Positions 4,622 to 29,308 of a DNA stretch of 64,000 bases are shown in pieces. The stretch lies in NCBI RefSeq assembly GCF_900112415.1, contig NZ_FOLV01000017.1, positions 1 to 64,000 on the forward strand, in the 5' to 3' direction. The notes below the pieces were generated by a model. The model worked only from the letters and a program-made list of their open reading frames with translations, ran no database searches and had not been told where the DNA came from. The DNA is from Bacillus sp. 491mf. Its GTDB lineage: Bacteria; Bacillota; Bacilli; Bacillales; Bacillaceae_G. The translations under genes were made by a program, and so were the position numbers. The stretch's first letter is position 1. Every line of letters starts with the position of its first letter.

Positions 4622-5359
4622 ATGCGTGCGTTTCGCCCCCGAACTTCTCGATTTCGGAAAGGACCATTGCCATTTCGTTACGTATTGCTGATTTCATTCG
4701 CTATTTTTATTTTGCTTACCTTACAAGGATTGTGGATTGTGAATAAAAGCATTCAGCCGACTTTAATGAAATATGCAGAAATGCAAACGAAGCGGACGGC
4801 GACAGTTGTGATGACGAAGGCAGTGAAAGATAGGGTTGCAAAAGGCATCAACGTTGATTCATTAATGAAAGTGCAAACGGATAAGAACGGAAAAGTTTCG
4901 ACAATGGATTTAAATACAGAAGCAGTTAATGAAATTTTAACGTCAACAACAACGTACATAGAGGAATATTTACACCAGGTTGAAAAAGGAAATACGAAAG
5001 CGTTAGGATTATCAGAAGATGACGGGACGGCACTATCTGTTCCGCTCGGAAGAATTACGGATAACGCATTGCTCGGTAATATAGGACCAGATATTCCGGT
5101 TACGTTTACAACAATTGGTCATGTAACGACAAATATTAAACAAGATTTCCAGCAGCAAGGGATTAATAATACGGCGATAAAAATTGTGATGGAAATTGAA
5201 GTGGCACTGCAAGTGATTATTCCGTTCCATACAAAAGAAGTAACTGTGAAGCAAGATATTCCAATTGCCACGCGCATTGTTCAAGGTGAGGTGCCTGATT
5301 ATTATGGAAACGGAGGAGTTGTTGTTCCAGAAAAGAGCGAGAAAAAAGCGGCTAACTGA
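4622..5359 (+). CDS. yunB: Sporulation protein YunB
   Basis: A 245-residue protein with a basic N-terminus (RAFRPRTSRFRK), one membrane segment at about residues 22-42, and a long extracytoplasmic domain rich in Thr and Val. It matches YunB, a protein needed for efficient sporulation in B. subtilis and expressed in the mother cell. AAGGAGGG precedes the ATG by seven bases. A bidirectional terminator separates it from convergent lytH, another sporulation gene. Confidence 0.88.
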   Translation: MRAFRPRTSRFRKGPLPFRYVLLISFAIFILLTLQGLWIVNKSIQPTLMKYAEMQTKRTATVVMTKAVKDRVAKGINVDSLMKVQTDKNGKVSTMDLNTEAVNEILTSTTTYIEEYLHQVEKGNTKALGLSEDDGTALSVPLGRITDNALLGNIGPDIPVTFTTIGHVTTNIKQDFQQQGINNTAIKIVMEIEVALQVIIPFHTKEVTVKQDIPIATRIVQGEVPDYYGNGGVVVPEKSEKKAAN

Positions 5360-9152: not shown

Positions 9153-9705
9153 AATACATACCCCACAATCTGTGGATAATTGCTGCATCTTGTTCGATCG
9201 TAATTTCGTATACGTCTGGATTGCTTAAGCTTCTCCATGTGGAAAACTCAATGCTTTCGTCAAAAATCCTTAAGATGAGTGTGAATAAGTTACCGTGTGT
9301 AACGAGTAGTGTTACTGTTTGTGTATCATCTTGTAATATGCTGTGGATAAGTGATTGAACTCTCTCTGTCGCTTGGCGTGTAGATTCTCCGCCGGGAAAA
9401 GCGATATCTATGTCTGTAAATGTTTGCTCTAGCATTTGTAACCAATTACTCATTGGAGCGCTGCTTAATATACGCTCAGTTAATCGTTCATCCTTTTGGA
9501 TAGGGAGTCCTATATGTGACGCATAAGGTGTAATGGATTGGACAGCACGAATAAAAGGACTAGAGATAATATTTTCGATTGGCAGCCGTTTTGTGATAAG
9601 AAAATTGGCAAGATCGTTTGCTTGTTGCTCACCTATTGCTGTAAGGGGAGCATCATGTTCTTGTCCAGTTGCTGCGCAGTGGCGCACAACAATTAATTTT
9701 TTCAT
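9139..9705 (-). CDS. Histidine phosphatase family protein (phosphoglycerate mutase-like)
   Basis: A 188-residue protein with the catalytic RHC motif near the N-terminus (VVRHCAATGQE), the acid/base region FPGGEST, and the second histidine in LLVTHGN. These mark the histidine phosphatase superfamily, whose members act on small phosphorylated metabolites. It leads a three-gene minus-strand operon with the YoaP-like acetyltransferase and YbaK-like protein. The exact substrate cannot be deduced. Confidence 0.85.
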   Translation of the reverse strand: MKKLIVVRHCAATGQEHDAPLTAIGEQQANDLANFLITKRLPIENIISSPFIRAVQSITPYASHIGLPIQKDERLTERILSSAPMSNWLQMLEQTFTDIDIAFPGGESTRQATERVQSLIHSILQDDTQTVTLLVTHGNLFTLILRIFDESIEFSTWRSLSNPDVYEITIEQDAAIIHRLWGMYCETN

Positions 9706-22842: not shown

Positions 22843-23844
22843 TTAACTCTCTTTATGAAAGGTGAAGGAATTTACGGAGTATGCCGTAATATGTTGATTT
22901 GTTTGTTTGTTAGATTCTTTTTCGGATGTCTTTTGTATGTTTTGATTTTCAATCGCAATTTTGATGCGCCGTGAAATTACATTAGCAGCAATAATAGTGA
23001 GGATGAAACATCCTATTGGTACCATTGGAATCCAAGGGTGAACAGTGAAAGAACGGAAGTAGAGTCCGATTAATCCAGACCATTCATTGCTGTCAGATTC
23101 CACCTCGTTAGCAGAGAAAAGGATTGTCCCTCCAAAATATAATTCTAAAATTCCTAAATGGGATAAAAGAATTAAAGCTTGTATAAATTGTTGCGTTAAG
23201 ACAATCATAAAAACAGAAAATAAATGAGGGAACAAATGTCTTTTTATAAGATGCCATTTACTTCCCCCAAGTATTTGAGCGGCATGCATAAACTCTTCGG
23301 AAAGAAGTTTTTTTGTTTCATTTGCAAAATAAAATGATAGGGTAGGTAGGGCTAAAATGATAAGTACTATTATTTCAAATAAAGCACGCTGATAAAATGG
23401 AGGGGGCACAGCGCCATTATCAAATTTCAATACAGTGTTTAATATAAAGTAAGCAATCAACGTCATTGGGATAACTGTAAAACTATCAAAAGTAGCCTCT
23501 AATGTTTTAAATTTTCTTTTTACATAAAAAGCCATACAAATCCCAATGCCTATTCCTAAAATTGTTCGTATGAACGCAATGAGGAAGGTAATGCCAATGC
23601 TCCATTTTGCCCCTGCTACAACGCGGTGTAGTAGGTCATATCCTTTTCTATCTGTTCCTAATAAAAAAGTGGAAGATGGAGGGAATGGAGCGGCTTGTAC
23701 ATTGCCATTTTCATCAGATCGAATGGACACTTGGCGAATTTTTCCATCAGTAAGTACGGAATTCCCCATACTTGCTAGTACAAAGAGAAGAAGAAAGGAA
23801 ATGCTAATAATAAAATATTTATCTTTTTTTAATGTACGCCACAT
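22843..23844 (-). CDS. OppC/DppC-like ABC transporter permease
   Basis: A 333-residue permease with about six membrane helices. The N-terminal GTDRKGYDLLHRVVAGAKWSI and the EAA loop EFMHAAQILGGSKWHLIKRHLFPHLF mark the binding-protein-dependent (OppC-type) family. It starts one base after the stop of the OppB-like gene, so the two form a heterodimer unit. No matching ATPase or solute-binding protein lies nearby. It may share an ATPase from elsewhere or act with the peptide cluster upstream. Confidence 0.85.
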   Translation of the reverse strand: MWRTLKKDKYFIISISFLLLFVLASMGNSVLTDGKIRQVSIRSDENGNVQAAPFPPSSTFLLGTDRKGYDLLHRVVAGAKWSIGITFLIAFIRTILGIGIGICMAFYVKRKFKTLEATFDSFTVIPMTLIAYFILNTVLKFDNGAVPPPFYQRALFEIIVLIILALPTLSFYFANETKKLLSEEFMHAAQILGGSKWHLIKRHLFPHLFSVFMIVLTQQFIQALILLSHLGILELYFGGTILFSANEVESDSNEWSGLIGLYFRSFTVHPWIPMVPIGCFILTIIAANVISRRIKIAIENQNIQKTSEKESNKQTNQHITAYSVNSFTFHKES

Positions 23845-23845
23845 G

Positions 23846-24709
23846 TTAGGCCTCTCCTTTCAATTCATCGGGAATGAAGATATGAAACAACTTGAATAAG
23901 AAGAAAATAGGAATATAAATGAGCATTAGAGCAATGGTGAAAATTTCAGGTGTTCCATAGTCTTTTAAAAATGTAAAAATGCCAGAAATGTTAAATAAAT
24001 ATTCAATAATATATAAATTAGATAGCATAAACCATATGTTTGTTTTTGAAAAATATAGCATACTAAGCAATACGTTTCGTAAAACATGATGATTTAAAAT
24101 ATAAAATTTATCAAATCCTTTGGAACGGGCTAACAACACGTAGTCTTTTTGTAGTTCTGTTTCAAATCGCAATAAGAGTAATTTTGTGAACAGTAAAGTG
24201 GTGGGGAGGCTAAGGCAAAGGATTGGTAATAATACGATAGATTCTTCACCTACTCTAGCGATATTTATAACAAGTAGATCTGTTTGTTTATAAATTAAAA
24301 TAACGAGAAATTGAAGTCCGATAATAAGTAAAATATCGGGAATGGCCTCAAGAAACTCGAAAAAAATCTTTATTTTTTCTTTTCTCTTCTCAGACATTTG
24401 CAAGAGGAAATAAACGATAAGAAATGAGATAATTATAGAAGTAAGAAGTGACATAAAAAAAATAAACACAGTTTCTTTATACTGTATTAAAATTTGTGGA
24501 AATAAAGGCCTCATGTAAGCTGAATATGTTATAGGGGTATTGCCAATTAGTTTAGAAAATGTTGATGTGATCGCATTTATATAATTTGTGATATCAAATT
24601 TCATGCCAACAAATAATTGGGGCAATGTTCCTAAAAATAGAATAACAATGATTGATAAAATGAAATGAATTGGTATTTCTGTATATTTGTTGGTAAAAAA
24701 TTTTTTCAT
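23846..24709 (-). CDS. OppB-like ABC transporter permease
   Basis: A 287-residue permease with about six helices and an EAA loop (DYVLLARSKGFDKFYILNHHVLRNVL). It is more divergent and AT-rich than standard OppB. GGGGG precedes the ATG by six bases. It lies downstream of the terminator (24812-24835) that closes the peptide/exporter operon and upstream of the OppC-like partner. Involvement in uptake or immunity for the neighbouring peptide is an inference from position only. Confidence 0.82.
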   Translation of the reverse strand: MKKFFTNKYTEIPIHFILSIIVILFLGTLPQLFVGMKFDITNYINAITSTFSKLIGNTPITYSAYMRPLFPQILIQYKETVFIFFMSLLTSIIISFLIVYFLLQMSEKRKEKIKIFFEFLEAIPDILLIIGLQFLVILIYKQTDLLVINIARVGEESIVLLPILCLSLPTTLLFTKLLLLRFETELQKDYVLLARSKGFDKFYILNHHVLRNVLLSMLYFSKTNIWFMLSNLYIIEYLFNISGIFTFLKDYGTPEIFTIALMLIYIPIFFLFKLFHIFIPDELKGEA

Positions 24710-24811
24710 ACACAGCCCCCCATAGTTATTGCAATAACGTCATTAGTTAATGTTTTTTACTTTTTAATCTAATATGCAATAAAACCTTATAATAAAAATT
24801 GTGAAAGTGAA

Positions 24812-24835
24812 AAACTGTACTTATAAGTACAGTTT
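24812..24835 (-). terminator. Terminator at the end of the peptide/exporter operon
   Basis: A self-complementary 24-base palindrome (AAACTGTACTT/AAGTACAGTTT arms), followed on the minus strand by TTTTTC. Confidence 0.8.
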
Positions 24836-24949
24836 CCTTCCTATGGATCTTTTAGTAATCATCTTCTTTATATGTAGCGGAAAAACTAGTTTTTTGTCGA
24901 TATCTTTTAAATGTATACGACAGAATATTTCGAAAATCCTTCTTGCCAT
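24821..24949 (-). CDS. Possible small cationic protein, 42 aa
   Basis: The frame starts with ATG one base after the stop of the small membrane protein gene and ends in the terminator hairpin. The predicted peptide begins MARRIFEIFCRIHLKDIDKK and contains about twelve Lys/Arg. There is no clear ribosome binding site, but the tight spacing would allow reinitiation. It could be a chance frame; if real, it might be an immunity or accessory peptide. Confidence 0.3.
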   Translation of the reverse strand: MARRIFEIFCRIHLKDIDKKLVFPLHIKKMITKRSIGRKLYL

Positions 24950-24950
24950 T

Positions 24951-25124
24951 TTATATGTTTGTTATATCTTCTTCTTTATCTTCTTCGCTGGAATGAATCA
25001 TTTTAATAATACCAACCTGTGTTTGAAATCGATTTAAAAAATCTGTTACGAGCTTAATTAATAAAAAAAGAACGATAATTTGAATAATCATACATGCCCA
25101 AAGTAAATAATCAGACCAGTTCAT
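24951..25124 (-). CDS. Small membrane protein of the peptide cluster, 57 aa
   Basis: A 57-residue protein with one hydrophobic segment (about residues 7-27: LLWACMIIQIIVLFLLIKLV) and an acidic C-terminus (SSEEDKEEDITNI). Its ATG overlaps the TGA of the MauE-like gene (ATGA) and AAGGAGAG lies upstream. The coupling ties it to the redox/export module. No family recognised; an accessory or immunity role is a guess. Confidence 0.65.
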   Translation of the reverse strand: MNWSDYLLWACMIIQIIVLFLLIKLVTDFLNRFQTQVGIIKMIHSSEEDKEEDITNI

Positions 25125-25723
25125 GTTTTTCTCTCTCCTTTTAAGTTCTTTGTAATTTCTAAAAATTGCTCTATATGACGATGCATAGCTATAAATAGAC
25201 GGAAAATTGAAAAGAAAAATACGAAACAAATCGAAATACATATAGATAGAATGGCGCTTTTATTAAAGATATAAGAACCAGATTGTTCGTTAAAAAAAAG
25301 CTCTTGTAAACTTCCTAAATATGTTTCATTTTGTAAAAGAACATAAAGAGCTCCTAGCAGAATAGTGTTACGTAAAACTAGAAACCAAGATAATTGGTGA
25401 TTCCCAGCCATTCCTCCACAGCCACATGAAATATGAGTTCGTTTCCTTAGTAAATTAACAGAAATACCAAGTGTATATAATGTTAATAAAATTAACAATC
25501 CCAAGCTTGCAATGGTAGAAAAAAGCCCTACGAGTAGAAAGAAAGCACATAACAATTCAATAATAACTTCAATTGTTGCAAAGAATTTAGCAGTTTGATT
25601 TGGAATGATTTGATATTCTTTTATAATAATTATATGTTCGCTAAAATGGGTTAGCTTACTTAGAGCTGTAGAAATAAATAGACAACCAATGATAATTCGT
25701 AATATAAGTATTAATTCATTCAT
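25121..25723 (-). CDS. MauE/DoxX-like redox-associated membrane protein
   Basis: A 200-residue protein with about five membrane helices. The first 100 residues match MauE/DoxX-like proteins, and HISCGCGGMAGNHQLSW between helices carries the cysteines typical of MauE-type proteins that exchange disulfides with a thioredoxin-like MauD. A thioredoxin-like gene sits upstream in the same operon, so the pair could oxidise cysteines in the small peptides. The start overlaps the exporter gene by four bases (ATGA). Confidence 0.78.
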   Translation of the reverse strand: MNELILILRIIIGCLFISTALSKLTHFSEHIIIIKEYQIIPNQTAKFFATIEVIIELLCAFFLLVGLFSTIASLGLLILLTLYTLGISVNLLRKRTHISCGCGGMAGNHQLSWFLVLRNTILLGALYVLLQNETYLGSLQELFFNEQSGSYIFNKSAILSICISICFVFFFSIFRLFIAMHRHIEQFLEITKNLKGERKT

Positions 25724-27525
25724 ATAACAACCTCGCTTTTCTCTTTCTCATACAAGTTAGCTTGTGTTGTATATAGTTTGTAATATGTCTGCTTGTTTTC
25801 CATAAGATTTTCATGAGAGCCAATTTCGACAAGCTTTCCATTATCGAGGACAATAATTTTATCAGCTAATTTAGCAGCAGACATTTTGTGAGAAATCATA
25901 ATTGCTGTTTTTCCTTTTGTCATTTGATTAAATTTATCAAAAATCTCCTTCTCGGATAAAGGGTCTAAAGCGGACGTAGGTTCATCTAAAATCATAATTG
26001 AGCTATTTTTAAATAAAGCACGGGCTATTGCGATTTTTTGCCATTGACCACCAGACAATTCCTCACCATCTTGAAGAAATCTTCCTAAATATGTTTTTGA
26101 TTTATTTGGAAGGTTCTCTATATACTTATAAATACCCGCCTGTTTAGCTGCTTTTTCAATTTTATTCTTGTCATATTTATTTGATATGTCTCCAAAATAA
26201 ATATTTTCATCAATTGTAAAAAAATAGCGAGTAAAATCTTGAAAGATCACAGTTGTGTTCTCTCTTAATGAGTGTAAATTGATGTTGTGAATTGGAATAT
26301 CATCAAAATAAATATTTCCAGATGTGACAGGATATAGTCCAATCATACATTTAATTAAAGTTGTTTTTCCAGATCCGTTATGCCCTACAATAACGATATT
26401 TTCCCCAGGTTGAATGGAGAAAGAGAGGTTCTGTAAAATTTTTTTATCACTATTTGGATAAGAGAACGATACATTTTCAAAACGAATTCCTTTTTTTAAA
26501 ACAGCTGGGAATGGTAAGTATTCTGTTTTATCTAATTCAACTTCTTCAAATGAATCAATATAGTTGAAGTAATCATATATGTATAATATATCTTCATACA
26601 GTTGTGCAAAGTTTGTTGAAATAGCATGTAGGGCACTTTGTGTGCTATGGACAGCTTGTCCAATTGAAACAAAATCCCCAATTTTTACAGCTGATTTTTT
26701 TATAAGCCATATGATGATCCCAGCTGCTCCACAATATGAAATAGCAATGATGCCATCAAGAAAAATTTCAGCCTTACTTTTCACTTTTATAAAAGATAGA
26801 GAGTACTTCATATTTTCTTCATATTTTTTTTTCCATCTTTGAATAAAGTGAGGGTATAAGTTAAAGAGTCTTACTTCTTTAGAAGAGTCTTTTTCCATAA
26901 TGAGATTTTCAATATAAGTTGTTTCCCTTATAATGGGAGTTAATGTTTTACTGAGTAAGAATCCTTTTTTTCCTAAGTGAGATTTGATCATAATCGTAGG
27001 AATGAAAACGATAGTGCTAATAAGTGCTAAACTCCAATGGATAGAAATTAATAAAATAATTAAAGACGAAATTGTAATTAGGGATTGTGTGATAGAAAAT
27101 ATGCTATTAATCGGCGACAAAATTCGTCTTCCAGTGTTTGATTTGACACGGTTTGTATGATTATAAAAGTCTGGATTGTCAAAATAAGAATAAGGAATTT
27201 TAATTGTTTTTTGTGCAATTTTTTCTGTTAAACATTTATTAAGTTCAAAGTGTAGTTTCTCATCAACATAATGTTGTATCTGTTTTATTACAGTTTCAGC
27301 AAGTAAAAGCATAAATTGTAAGATGAGTAAAAAAATTGCTAAATCATAATTTTGCTCGTTATCCATAATTAATAGAGACACTGTATTTACAAGTTCTTTT
27401 GTTACCCAAATTGTTGCAGCAGGTAATATTCCTAATATGAGCATAAATAATATGGAATAAAAGAGCCAAGACTTTTTTAGATTCCAGATGAGTTTATACG
27501 TTCTGAGAATATAGGAAAATAACAT
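25720..27525 (-). CDS. ABC exporter, fused membrane and ATPase domains
   Basis: A 601-residue half-exporter: about six membrane helices (residues 20-320), then an ATPase with Walker A VGHNGSGKTT, signature LSGGQWQKIAIARA, Walker B IMILDEPTSALDP and H-loop ISHKM. There is no N-terminal C39 peptidase domain, so it would export without cutting a double-Gly leader. Position directly after the peptide genes and thioredoxin-like gene makes it the probable exporter of the peptides. GGTGAGG precedes the ATG. Confidence 0.9.
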   Translation of the reverse strand: MLFSYILRTYKLIWNLKKSWLFYSILFMLILGILPAATIWVTKELVNTVSLLIMDNEQNYDLAIFLLILQFMLLLAETVIKQIQHYVDEKLHFELNKCLTEKIAQKTIKIPYSYFDNPDFYNHTNRVKSNTGRRILSPINSIFSITQSLITISSLIILLISIHWSLALISTIVFIPTIMIKSHLGKKGFLLSKTLTPIIRETTYIENLIMEKDSSKEVRLFNLYPHFIQRWKKKYEENMKYSLSFIKVKSKAEIFLDGIIAISYCGAAGIIIWLIKKSAVKIGDFVSIGQAVHSTQSALHAISTNFAQLYEDILYIYDYFNYIDSFEEVELDKTEYLPFPAVLKKGIRFENVSFSYPNSDKKILQNLSFSIQPGENIVIVGHNGSGKTTLIKCMIGLYPVTSGNIYFDDIPIHNINLHSLRENTTVIFQDFTRYFFTIDENIYFGDISNKYDKNKIEKAAKQAGIYKYIENLPNKSKTYLGRFLQDGEELSGGQWQKIAIARALFKNSSIMILDEPTSALDPLSEKEIFDKFNQMTKGKTAIMISHKMSAAKLADKIIVLDNGKLVEIGSHENLMENKQTYYKLYTTQANLYEKEKSEVVI

Positions 27526-27546
27526 GTTTCCTCACCTTCTTTTCAT

Positions 27547-28035
27547 TTAAATCGCTTTATCAGCTAGTGTGGAAAATTTTTTTATAATTCCTTGTGAGTC
27601 AATATGAATAAACGTCGGAAATAGAAAAATATTGAGACGATGTTGTTGCTTTTTTGAAAGTGGGAATACAATTAAATTACTTTTTTTGCTTATATTTTTT
27701 GTTATTTCTTCAAATATGATTTTGTCATCAGATTCTAAATACAAGATAAGATTATGAGAAAGATGTTTTTTCTTTGTTATAATTTCGTCTAGTTTTTCAT
27801 GGCAAAGTTTACAAGTTGCTGACATGACCATAACAATAGATTCTTTATGATACTCATAAGAATGAGGTAAAGTTAAAATGTGTGTAATGTTTTGATCAAG
27901 TAAAGGATCTTTATATGGTATAGAAGAATTTAGTTTTGGGAGCATCTGAACTGCTTTTTTAAAAAATTGCAACTTAATAGCTAGTATTAAAATTAGGGAT
28001 AACCACAGTGAAAATAATAGAATATATGTAATCAT
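27547..28035 (-). CDS. Membrane-anchored thioredoxin-like (MauD/TlpA-type) protein
   Basis: A 162-residue protein with an N-terminal membrane anchor (ITYILLFSLWLSLILILAI), then a thioredoxin-like domain whose active-site-like CKLC follows ESIVMVMSAT. It resembles MauD/TlpA-type thiol-disulfide proteins, with a shortened fold. The ATG at 28035 follows AAAGGCG, directly after the terminator T run; the longer frame reading back into the peptide repeats is an artefact. Together with MauE-like it suggests disulfide formation in the exported peptides. Confidence 0.75.
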   Translation of the reverse strand: MITYILLFSLWLSLILILAIKLQFFKKAVQMLPKLNSSIPYKDPLLDQNITHILTLPHSYEYHKESIVMVMSATCKLCHEKLDEIITKKKHLSHNLILYLESDDKIIFEEITKNISKKSNLIVFPLSKKQQHRLNIFLFPTFIHIDSQGIIKKFSTLADKAI

Positions 28036-28048
28036 GGTAAACGCCTTT

Positions 28049-28098
28049 CTAAAAAAATGTAATCCAAAGCTAAGGATAGATATCTTTGGCTTTGGATT
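28049..28098 (-). terminator. Terminator/attenuator between peptide genes and export genes
   Basis: AATCCAAAGC (28061-28070) pairs with GCTTTGGATT (28089-28098), and on the minus strand is followed by ACATTTTTTT. Partial read-through would give high peptide and low exporter expression. Confidence 0.8.
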
Positions 28099-28106
28099 AG
28101 TGAGTA

Positions 28107-28258
28107 TTAGCAACAACCGTTTTTGACTATTCTTCCAGTTGGAAGTAGACGGTATCCTTGTAGGTACTTTGGATTTGTTGAACAAAGTTCATCTCTTTGG
28201 CAACCATCTTCGGTCCTACAAATTCACCTTTTGTCACTCCAAATAATTTTGCTAAAAT
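28107..28258 (-). pseudogene. Degenerate fourth copy of the cysteine-peptide gene
   Basis: The sequence aligns with the intact copies from ILAKLFGVTKG onward but has lost its start codon, which is replaced by the end of the preceding copy. After GGACCG it lacks about ten bases, which shifts the frame. Its 3' end is intact and finishes GGT TGT TGC TAA (Gly-Cys-Cys-stop), showing the ancestral C-terminus. Confidence 0.75.
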
Positions 28259-28431
28259 GGCCAGCAACAACCGTTTTTGACTACTTTTCCAGTTGGAAGT
28301 AGACGGTATCCTTGATAGTAACCTGAATTTGTTGAACAAAGTTCAGTTTTTTGACAACCATCTTCATAGTATTGCGGTCCCACAACTTCGCCTTTTGTTA
28401 CTCCAAATAATTTTGCTAAAATGTTACTCAT
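28252..28431 (-). CDS. Cysteine-containing small peptide, copy B (bacteriocin-like)
   Basis: A 59-residue peptide starting MSNILAKLFGVTKGEVVG and ending KNGCCWPF, preceded by GGAGG. Cysteines are at 26, 32, 55 and 56, enough for two disulfides. The amphipathic N-terminus may be a leader; no Sec signal or double-Gly cut site is obvious. It differs from copy A at about eight positions, mostly between residues 28 and 49. Export and disulfide genes follow. I do not recognise a named family; bacteriocin or signalling peptide are both possible. Confidence 0.72.
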   Translation of the reverse strand: MSNILAKLFGVTKGEVVGPQYYEDGCQKTELCSTNSGYYQGYRLLPTGKVVKNGCCWPF

Positions 28432-28481
28432 ATTATTACCTCCATTTTCGTTTTTTGTAATGAAAGTAAAATTTTACTAAA

Positions 28482-28610
28482 TGGAAGTAGACGATATCTT
28501 TGTAGGTACTTTGGATTTGTTGAACAAAGTTCATTGCGTTGGCAACCATCTTCACATCGTTGCAGTCCTACAACTTTACCTTTTGTCACTCCAAATAATT
28601 TTACTAATAT
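28482..28610 (-). pseudogene. Degenerate second copy of the cysteine-peptide gene
   Basis: It aligns with the peptide copies from LVKLFGVTKG through CEDGCQ, ELCSTN and RLLP, with an added Cys at the RCED position, but lacks a start codon and its C-terminal Gly-Cys-Cys end, which is replaced by promoter-like sequence of the next unit. Its frame stays open until a TGA that overlaps the ATG of copy B. Confidence 0.7.
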
Positions 28611-28783
28611 GGCCAGCAACAACCATTTTTGACTACTCTTCCATTTGGAAGTAGACGGTATCCTTGTAGGTACTTTCGGTTTGTTGAACAAAGTTCATCA
28701 CTTTGACAACCATCTTCATAGTATTGCGGTCCCACAACTTCACCTTTTGTTACTCCAAATAATTTTGCTAAAATGTTACTCAT
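28604..28783 (-). CDS. Cysteine-containing small peptide, copy A (bacteriocin-like)
   Basis: A 59-residue peptide, MSNILAKLFGVTKGEVVG at the start and KNGCCWPY at the end, with cysteines at 26, 32, 55 and 56. GGAGG is seven bases before the ATG. Conserved between copies are residues 1-26, the ELCSTN block, GYRLLP and the VVKNGCC end. It is the first gene of the cluster, 15 bases from a promoter region with a long inverted repeat. The last three residues come from reading into the next repeat copy. Confidence 0.75.
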   Translation of the reverse strand: MSNILAKLFGVTKGEVVGPQYYEDGCQSDELCSTNRKYLQGYRLLPNGRVVKNGCCWPY

Positions 28784-28797
28784 ATCATCGCCTCCAT

Positions 28798-28850
28798 TTG
28801 AATTTTTTGTAATACAAGTAAAATTCTACTAATTTTTACAAAAAATTCAA
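28798..28850 (-). promoter_or_regulatory. Peptide-operon promoter within a 15-bp inverted repeat
   Basis: Perfect 15-base arms (28798-28812 and 28836-28850; TTGAATTTTTTGTAA and its complement) flank 23 bases. On the minus strand TTGAAT in the far arm and TAGAAT (28828-28823) are spaced 16 bases, a plausible sigma-A promoter. The near arm lies between start site and ribosome binding site, so the dyad could be an operator or an mRNA hairpin. A truncated version precedes copy B. Confidence 0.55.
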
Positions 28851-29211: not shown

Positions 29212-29253
29212 GAAAAAATACAACGGACCATGATTTGCAAATCATGGTCCGTT
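29212..29253 (-). terminator. yutG terminator
   Basis: A perfect 32-base palindrome (arms begin AACGGACCATGATTTG) followed on the minus strand by GTATTTTTTC. Confidence 0.9.
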
Positions 29254-29308
29254 ATATTTTAGTTGATTTTTTTGTATTTAAATTATGCCAGCTAAATAAA
29301 TTCTAACT

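What the first reader, a model, noticed from the sequence alone, without database searches (positions are those of the whole stretch)
22843..28850. Cysteine-containing peptide cluster with its own redox and export module
Tandem small peptide genes (four Cys each) are followed on one strand by a thioredoxin-like CKLC protein, a peptidase-less ABC exporter, a MauE/DoxX-like protein and a small membrane protein, with overlapping starts. MauE plus MauD-type proteins are known to form disulfides in methylamine dehydrogenase; here the same pairing next to short Cys peptides suggests a secreted disulfide-bonded peptide, possibly a bacteriocin or signal. I do not recognise the precursor family. The organisation is seen; the function is inference.
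Basis: partly seen in the sequence, partly recalled or inferred. Interest (0 to 1): 0.82.

Follow-up and report, generated by a model that had tools for sequence, protein, structure and literature searches.

The report
Disulfide-peptide operon with redox exporter module
This bacterium carries a small operon that most likely makes and exports short cysteine-bonded antibacterial peptides; related machinery recurs in other soil bacilli and also lies beside the known bacteriocin laterosporulin, which points to a wider, little-studied family of disulfide bacteriocins.

Summary
On the minus strand lie two intact 59-aa, four-Cys peptide genes and two broken copies, then a CKLC thioredoxin-like protein, a peptidase-less ABC exporter, MauE and a 57-aa membrane protein. 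The same gene set, found through MauE, Trx or ABC and not through the peptide, recurs in Priestia plasmids, Brevibacillus, Tumebacillus, Fictibacillus and a Paenibacillaceae MAG. A strict Cys-peptide scan hit 28 of 35 module loci against 1 of 55 control segments. Laterosporulin, a characterised leaderless disulfide bacteriocin, sits in a distantly homologous operon (Trx, ABC, MauD-type redoxin, MauE), although its peptide is not detectably related. I read the window as a divergent operon that works like laterosporulin production. Corrections: the MauD counterpart here is the 57-aa protein, reduced to its membrane anchor, and the Opp-type permeases at 22843-24709 are not shown to belong. Charge bias, a Trx-ABC fusion and laterosporulin-operon homologues without an N-terminal anchor put the redox domains on the cytoplasmic side, which suggests thiol handling before or during export. 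Export, disulfides and antibacterial activity are inferred, not shown.

The parts
28604..28783 (-). intact Cys-peptide gene, 59 aa, four Cys, ends GCCWPY; N-terminal KLFGVT motif
   Evidence: Shine-Dalgarno-like sequence present
28252..28431 (-). second intact Cys-peptide gene, 59 aa; first 27 residues identical to the other, all 8 differences lie from residue 28 on
28428..28625 (-). broken peptide copy (lacks the usual C-terminal CC); approximate limits
28105..28262 (-). broken peptide copy (frame interrupted); approximate limits
28051..28099 (-). hairpin followed by a T run between peptide array and redox genes, terminator-like (possibly a partial terminator)
   Evidence: fold -15.3 kcal/mol, z -3.7; hairpins at the same place in L001 (z -4.9) and L036 (z -3.3). 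The simple terminator scan did not list it
27547..28035 (-). Trx-like protein, N-terminal TM then CKLC domain
   Evidence: Thioredoxin_2 0.021, below cut-off; both Cys and one Pro invariant in 9; nearest solved relative of the family profile StoA, E 1.9e-6
25720..27525 (-). ABC exporter (TMD+NBD), no C39 peptidase
   Evidence: 45% to the Priestia copy over 600 columns
25121..25723 (-). MauE/DoxX-type membrane protein with CGCGG motif
24951..25124 (-). 57-aa one-TM protein = anchor of a MauD-type redoxin without its thioredoxin domain
   Evidence: anchor-only counterparts in seven loci of the Brevibacillus family
23846..24709 (-). Opp/Dpp-type permease (OppB-like); membership in the module not shown
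22843..23844 (-). Opp/Dpp-type permease (OppC-like); membership in the module not shown

Best explanation
The window holds a compact operon for a ribosomal, disulfide-bonded, exported peptide, made in the manner of laterosporulin and most likely an antibacterial bacteriocin. Shown by sequence: tandem precursor genes with a conserved N-terminal segment and a varying Cys core, followed by a membrane-anchored CxxC thioredoxin-like protein, a peptidase-less ABC exporter, MauE and a MauD-type protein (here anchor only). Inferred: the CxxC domain works at the cytoplasmic mouth of the exporter and exchanges thiols with the peptide; MauE, through its CGCGG motif, passes the electrons to the membrane (quinone) pool, so that the peptide is oxidised, or held in a defined thiol state, as it is handed to the exporter; the peptide leaves whole or is trimmed by a host protease and acts on competitors. 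The confidence given is for the exported disulfide bacteriocin reading; the cytoplasmic-side step alone I put at about 0.4.
For: Same gene set with Cys-rich peptides in several genera, found via MauE, Trx or ABC and not via the peptide. 27 of 30 MauE matches in a 398-genome Bacilli survey have a Cys-rich small ORF beside them; two of the three misses are at contig ends. Strict scan 28 of 35 loci against 1 of 55 control segments. 27 of the 40 peptides found, chosen by me, align with four invariant Cys. The laterosporulin locus in 2 of 39 genomes of the Brevibacillus family holds Trx (CNFC/CSFC), a 616-aa ABC, a redoxin that hits MauD (1.8e-9, below cut-off) and MauE; profile comparison MauE 93.5%, E 2.3e-7 and Trx 82%, E 1e-5, each for a single comparison; its ABC aligns near full length to many module ABCs (up to 259 bits) against 123 bits for a lasso-cluster ABC. 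Laterosporulin is a purified bacteriocin from an ABC-linked cluster without a protease domain (PMC3293901, abstract and passages). Cytoplasmic side: K/R after the anchor exceed those before it in 24 of 29 Trx proteins and 28 of 30 redoxins with a TM, against 4 of 22 ResA-type controls with a TM; Trx fused to the ABC N-terminus in one Tumebacillus locus; laterosporulin-operon Trx and redoxin without an N-terminal anchor.
Confidence: 0.68

Rival explanations
1. Same bacteriocin operon, but conventional order: the peptide is exported reduced and the Trx domains and MauE form the disulfides outside the membrane, like DsbA/DsbB or BdbBC. (This shares most of the best explanation; the odds are not exclusive.)
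For: MauE is speculated to form disulfides in a methylamine dehydrogenase subunit (decRiPPter paper, passage), an enzyme outside the cytoplasm (recalled); the nearest solved Trx is StoA, which works outside the membrane (recalled); the TMcin disulfide is made by a DsbA-type protein (PMC13252029, Results part 1).
Against: Charge bias unlike ResA-type controls; fusion to the ABC N-terminus; laterosporulin-operon Trx has no TM.
Confidence: 0.2
2. The peptide is a signal or a metal-binding peptide rather than a bacteriocin; MauE/DoxX would serve a metallopeptide as HvfX does.
For: MauE hits HvfX weakly (2.8e-5, 24.4 bits against a cut-off of 80); CC and CxC ends resemble metal sites (by eye); MauE and a redoxin also stand in a lasso-peptide cluster (L011).
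Against: The core varies strongly, up to four modules occur in one genome (G414), and the characterised relative by operon kills bacteria. I did not look systematically for regulators or metal genes.
Confidence: 0.13
3. The window copy is a remnant: redoxin domain lost and peptides decaying, no product made.
For: Two broken peptide copies; the redoxin lacks its CxxC domain and no remnant is readable.
Against: Two intact peptides, intact Trx, ABC and MauE; an anchor-only protein right after MauE recurs in seven loci of the Brevibacillus family with pN/pS 0.11 summed over pairs.
Confidence: 0.12
4. Peptides are intracellular or spore-structural and the export/redox genes are unrelated neighbours.
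For: No Pfam or NCBIfam bacteriocin or leader family recognised.
Against: Co-occurrence across genera, overlapping genes, laterosporulin operon.
Confidence: 0.03

Closest known systems
Laterosporulin (class IId, leaderless, three disulfides; Brevibacillus laterosporus)
   Same: Small Cys-rich peptide gene followed on one strand by Trx-like protein, peptidase-less ABC exporter, MauD-type redoxin and MauE; MauE and Trx homologous by profile.
   Different: Peptides not detectably homologous; laterosporulin has six Cys and no N-terminal extension; its Trx and redoxin have no N-terminal membrane anchor; the window has four Cys and an anchor-only MauD.
MauD/MauE of methylamine dehydrogenase maturation
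   Same: Pfam MauE 1.9e-24; redoxins of two relatives hit TIGR02661 MauD, below its cut-off.
   Different: Linked to Cys peptides and an exporter; an extra Trx-like protein.
Streptomyces candidate RiPP clusters with mauE/mauD (decRiPPter, PMC7794033)
   Same: mauE, and in one family also mauD, beside predicted small precursors; the authors suggest a role in modification (passages).
   Different: Different phylum; no Trx-ABC-peptide arrangement in the passages I read.
TMcin (PMC13252029)
   Same: Disulfide bacteriocin with a dedicated oxidoreductase and ABC transporter.
   Different: DsbA-type TmcD, S2P-type protease, two-gene ABC transporter, transmembrane-helix precursor.

Membership tests
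Laterosporulin bacteriocins (class IId) | sequence homology to laterosporulin | tested here: not met
   hhalign A4 against A6 probability 0.2%
Laterosporulin bacteriocins (class IId) | six Cys, three disulfides | tested here: not met
   window peptides have four Cys; relatives four to eight; disulfides not testable
Laterosporulin bacteriocins (class IId) | no leader | tested here: inconclusive
   24 of 27 aligned peptides have an N-terminal extension, three start at the core; processing unknown
Laterosporulin bacteriocins (class IId) | defensin-like twisted beta-sheet fold | tested here: inconclusive
Laterosporulin bacteriocins (class IId) | operon with Trx, ABC, redoxin, MauE (seen by me in two loci, not a published criterion) | tested here: met
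   redoxin reduced to its anchor in the window
Laterosporulin bacteriocins (class IId) | antibacterial activity | not testable with these tools
   needs peptide
C39/double-glycine bacteriocins | C39 peptidase domain on the ABC exporter | tested here: not met
Methylamine dehydrogenase (mau) system | MauE and MauD present | tested here: inconclusive
   MauE met; MauD only as anchor
Methylamine dehydrogenase (mau) system | dehydrogenase subunits present | not tested
   only nine window proteins were scanned
HvfX copper-RiPP maturation | HvfX-family match above cut-off | tested here: not met
   24.4 bits against a cut-off of 80

The most novel reading that the evidence does not exclude
A dedicated cytoplasmic-face, membrane-tethered thiol relay (Trx and redoxin to MauE to quinone) docked at a peptidase-less ABC exporter oxidises, or thiol-chaperones, Cys-rich bacteriocins before or during export. 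The Trx domain takes the place that the C39 peptidase holds in other bacteriocin exporters, and an anchor-only MauD is a working variant. Laterosporulin is one branch of this family.
Probability: 0.35. Interest if true: 0.85.

Novelty: new variant of a known kind. Interest (0 to 1): 0.62.

Why it matters
Two reported attempts to express laterosporulin clusters in other hosts failed, and the authors suspected other host factors (PMC6510442, passages). The operon read here runs past the region described in 2012: in L090, 4 kb counted from the start of the LuxR-type regulator ORF at 5173 (GerE 2.1e-13) ends near 9173, after the redoxin and only some 50 bases into MauE. This is my inference, since the ends of the published 4-kb region were not available, but it gives a direct test. 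MauE matches of this type appear in 23 of 398 sampled Bacilli genomes with varied peptides, and none of the 27 aligned peptides reaches a curated Pfam or NCBIfam model (best sub-threshold E 0.013 and 0.007), so they are candidate disulfide bacteriocins that such annotation would miss. If the cytoplasmic-face redox model holds, it would be an unusual way to make disulfides in exported peptides.

Tried and rejected
The window peptide gave no match in plasmids, phages or viral contigs and nothing beyond noise in Pfam, NCBIfam and PHROGs; 27 of the 40 peptides were scanned in Pfam and NCBIfam in all. The family profile matched no solved structure, nor did the MauE profile. The single-sequence AF2 model was poor (pLDDT 58.7). 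The region was not found by megablast in plasmids, and MauE by tblastn at 1e-12 found none there although L001 holds one, so that search was too strict. Order- and family-level DNA searches to reach the window's own species group found only distant genomes, so presence or absence among close strains is untested. Opp permeases as part of the module: left out as unproven. The five genomes searched have 2 to 11 similar permeases, and the Fictibacillus copy closest to the window's lies elsewhere; yet in L081 and L083 such a pair directly follows the redoxin, and pairs lie within a few kb in L009, L011 and L067. A link between Cys number and anchor-only MauD was dropped: L008, L065, L066 and L010 have four-Cys peptides with a full redoxin. 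In one search the strict scan missed L070, L071 and L081, whose peptides appear under looser rules, and L006, L079, L083 and L087.

Limits: the 35 loci include close relatives (L074-L080 are seven copies from one family), so counts are not independent events. The controls come partly from high-GC genomes. Alignment A4 holds 27 of 40 peptides; left out were L008, L065, L066, L074-L078, L080, L081, one of three in L082, one repeat in L085 and one in L086. One search took 24 of 29 Trx proteins and 24 of 31 redoxins, run as a check, added the rest and lowered the Trx share from 22 of 24 to 24 of 29. In one search, 8 of 30 control loci gave no TM or a wrong frame and were dropped.
Full report
What is there. 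On the minus strand of the window, from 28783 down to 24951, lie two intact 59-aa peptide genes with four Cys each, two broken copies, a Trx-like CKLC protein, an ABC exporter without a C39 domain, MauE and a 57-aa one-TM protein. The peptide array arose by duplication: a 268-nt unit in two copies at 89% and a 130-nt unit in four. The two intact peptides are identical over their first 27 residues and differ at 8 later positions; pN/pS between them is about 0.94, from few changes. G+C is 0.26-0.30 for the four genes 24951-28035 and 0.28 for the OppB-like gene, against 0.38-0.40 for three genes outside; the peptide array (0.36) and OppC-like gene (0.35) are in between. This hints at acquisition. 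A stable hairpin followed by a T run separates peptides from redox genes, as in two Priestia plasmids.

Relatives. A Trx search in plasmids led to a Priestia megaterium plasmid with the same order: 60-aa Cys peptide, Trx, ABC (45% identical), MauE and a redoxin. A second Priestia plasmid, found by its ABC, has the same set up to MauE, where a Tn3-family element follows and no redoxin is annotated. A scan of species genomes with a two-sequence MauE alignment gave 18 loci. Nine (L002-L010: Tumebacillus, Brevibacillus, a Paenibacillaceae MAG, Longirhabdus, Fictibacillus) carry the machinery, eight of them with a recognised peptide and L006 without. One (L011) is a lasso-type cluster by its PqqD, transglutaminase and asparagine-synthase domains, and eight are proteobacterial. 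A profile survey of Bacilli genomes found matches at E<=1e-25 in 23 of 398, in 14 of 39 genomes of the family of G004 (a Brevibacillus) and in 3 of 7 of the family of G001 (Tumebacillus). I read 23 further loci. Of the 30 MauE matches, 27 have a Cys-rich small ORF nearby; L079, L083 and L087 do not, the last two at contig ends.

Is it more than chance? A fixed rule (Shine-Dalgarno-like sequence, 25-90 aa, at least four Cys, CC or CxC within the last eight residues, outside longer ORFs) found 37 candidates in 28 of 35 module loci and 1 in 55 control segments of similar total length. With three more from looser rules (L070, L071, L081) there are 40 peptides. Twenty-seven that I chose align with four invariant Cys and, in most, an N-terminal K-x-x-G motif. 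Three of them, in L085 and L086, begin directly at the core, so the N-terminal segment is dispensable in some branches. Six loci of the Brevibacillus family (L074-L078, L080) have instead a 32-aa four-Cys peptide. No paper in the held library contains the six peptide strings I tried.

The MauD partner. In most relatives a MauD-type redoxin with CxxC follows MauE. The window's 57-aa protein matches only its N-terminal anchor (38% over 34 aa) and no redoxin remnant could be read downstream. Seven loci of the Brevibacillus family also have only an anchor of about 53-55 aa; in the three I measured it starts 3 nt after MauE. It matches the redoxin profile weakly (21-22 bits, in a search of eight sequences) and the window protein at 25-34%; NCBIfam does not know it. 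Its pN/pS summed over pairs is 0.11. The anchor therefore seems to have a job without the redox domain.

Link to a known bacteriocin. With a pattern from the published laterosporulin N-terminus I found its locus in 2 of 39 genomes of the Brevibacillus family. Both hold a LuxR-type regulator upstream (tested in L090), laterosporulin, a Trx-like protein, a 616-aa ABC, a redoxin, MauE and a further TM protein in one run. The machinery is homologous to the window's family: MauE 93.5% (E 2.3e-7) and Trx 82% (E 1e-5) in single profile comparisons, redoxin E about 1e-11 by my profile. The ABC scores 316 bits with my profile, against 241 for an unrelated partial exporter, and aligns at about 27-35% to the module ABCs, so by itself it is weak evidence. 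The peptides show no detectable homology, and the fold comparison only hints. So I file the window as working like laterosporulin production, not as a laterosporulin.

Which side of the membrane? K/R within 15 residues after the anchor outnumber those before it in 24 of 29 Trx proteins (totals 19 before, 77 after; 4 equal, 1 opposite) and in 28 of 30 redoxins with a TM (13 before, 92 after; 1 equal, 1 opposite; one further redoxin gave no TM as read). In ResA-type controls this holds for 4 of 22, with totals of 47 before and 42 after. In one Tumebacillus locus, L010, Trx and ABC form one 795-aa ORF with Trx ahead of the ABC's N-terminus, which is cytoplasmic in exporters of this type (topology recalled). 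The laterosporulin-operon Trx and redoxin have no N-terminal anchor. The MauE CGCGG motif follows a basic stretch (sequences printed). All this favours a cytoplasmic-face relay. It is prediction, it depends on start codons, and StoA, the nearest solved relative, works outside (recalled).

What is not settled. Activity, export, disulfides, immunity and processing are untested. The quinone step rests on general knowledge of DoxX/MauE-type proteins (recalled). The Opp permeases next door belong to a repeated family and I leave them out, though pairs of this kind directly follow the redoxin in L081 and L083.

Prior art. decRiPPter noted MauE in three, and MauD in one, of its candidate Streptomyces RiPP families (PMC7794033, passages). 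A search for laterosporulin with methylamine found no paper. Searches for MauE with bacteriocin, RiPP, lasso or antimicrobial-peptide terms listed 4 of 4, 20 of 133, 5 of 5, 1 of 1, 15 of 58, 20 of 970 and 12 of 50 papers. No listed title describes this module, but I read only passages or sections of the papers named here, and unlisted papers and subscription journals were not seen. Failed heterologous expression of laterosporulin clusters is reported in PMC6510442 (passages). Actifensin (PMC6989792, passages), another defensin-like bacteriocin, has a different gene neighbourhood.

Noticed in passing
L011 9968-17517: In Bacillus sp. NTK074B MauE and a redoxin head a lasso-type cluster (PqqD, transglutaminase-like, asparagine-synthase domains and ABC) with a small Cys-containing ORF, followed on the other strand by an Opp-type permease pair; disulfide handling in a lasso peptide is plausible.
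   Followed up: partly
L010 7572-9959: Trx-like domain and ABC exporter fused in one 795-aa ORF in Tumebacillus avium.
   Followed up: yes
L036 9379-13100: Tn3-family transposase and recombinase follow MauE in a Priestia plasmid, where the redoxin lies in the other Priestia plasmid.
   Followed up: partly
L079: Module with machinery and anchor-only protein but no 32-aa peptide found.
   Followed up: partly
29216-29259: 20-pair hairpin with T-rich sequence on both sides, possibly a bidirectional terminator between the module and the next gene.
   Followed up: no
L001 6928-7308: 126-aa protein with an N-terminal hydrophobic stretch upstream of the peptide in both Priestia plasmids, an immunity candidate by position only.
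   Followed up: no
22843-24709: Opp-type permease pair without ATPases or binding protein directly beside it; similar permeases are repeated in other Bacillaceae genomes.
   Followed up: partly
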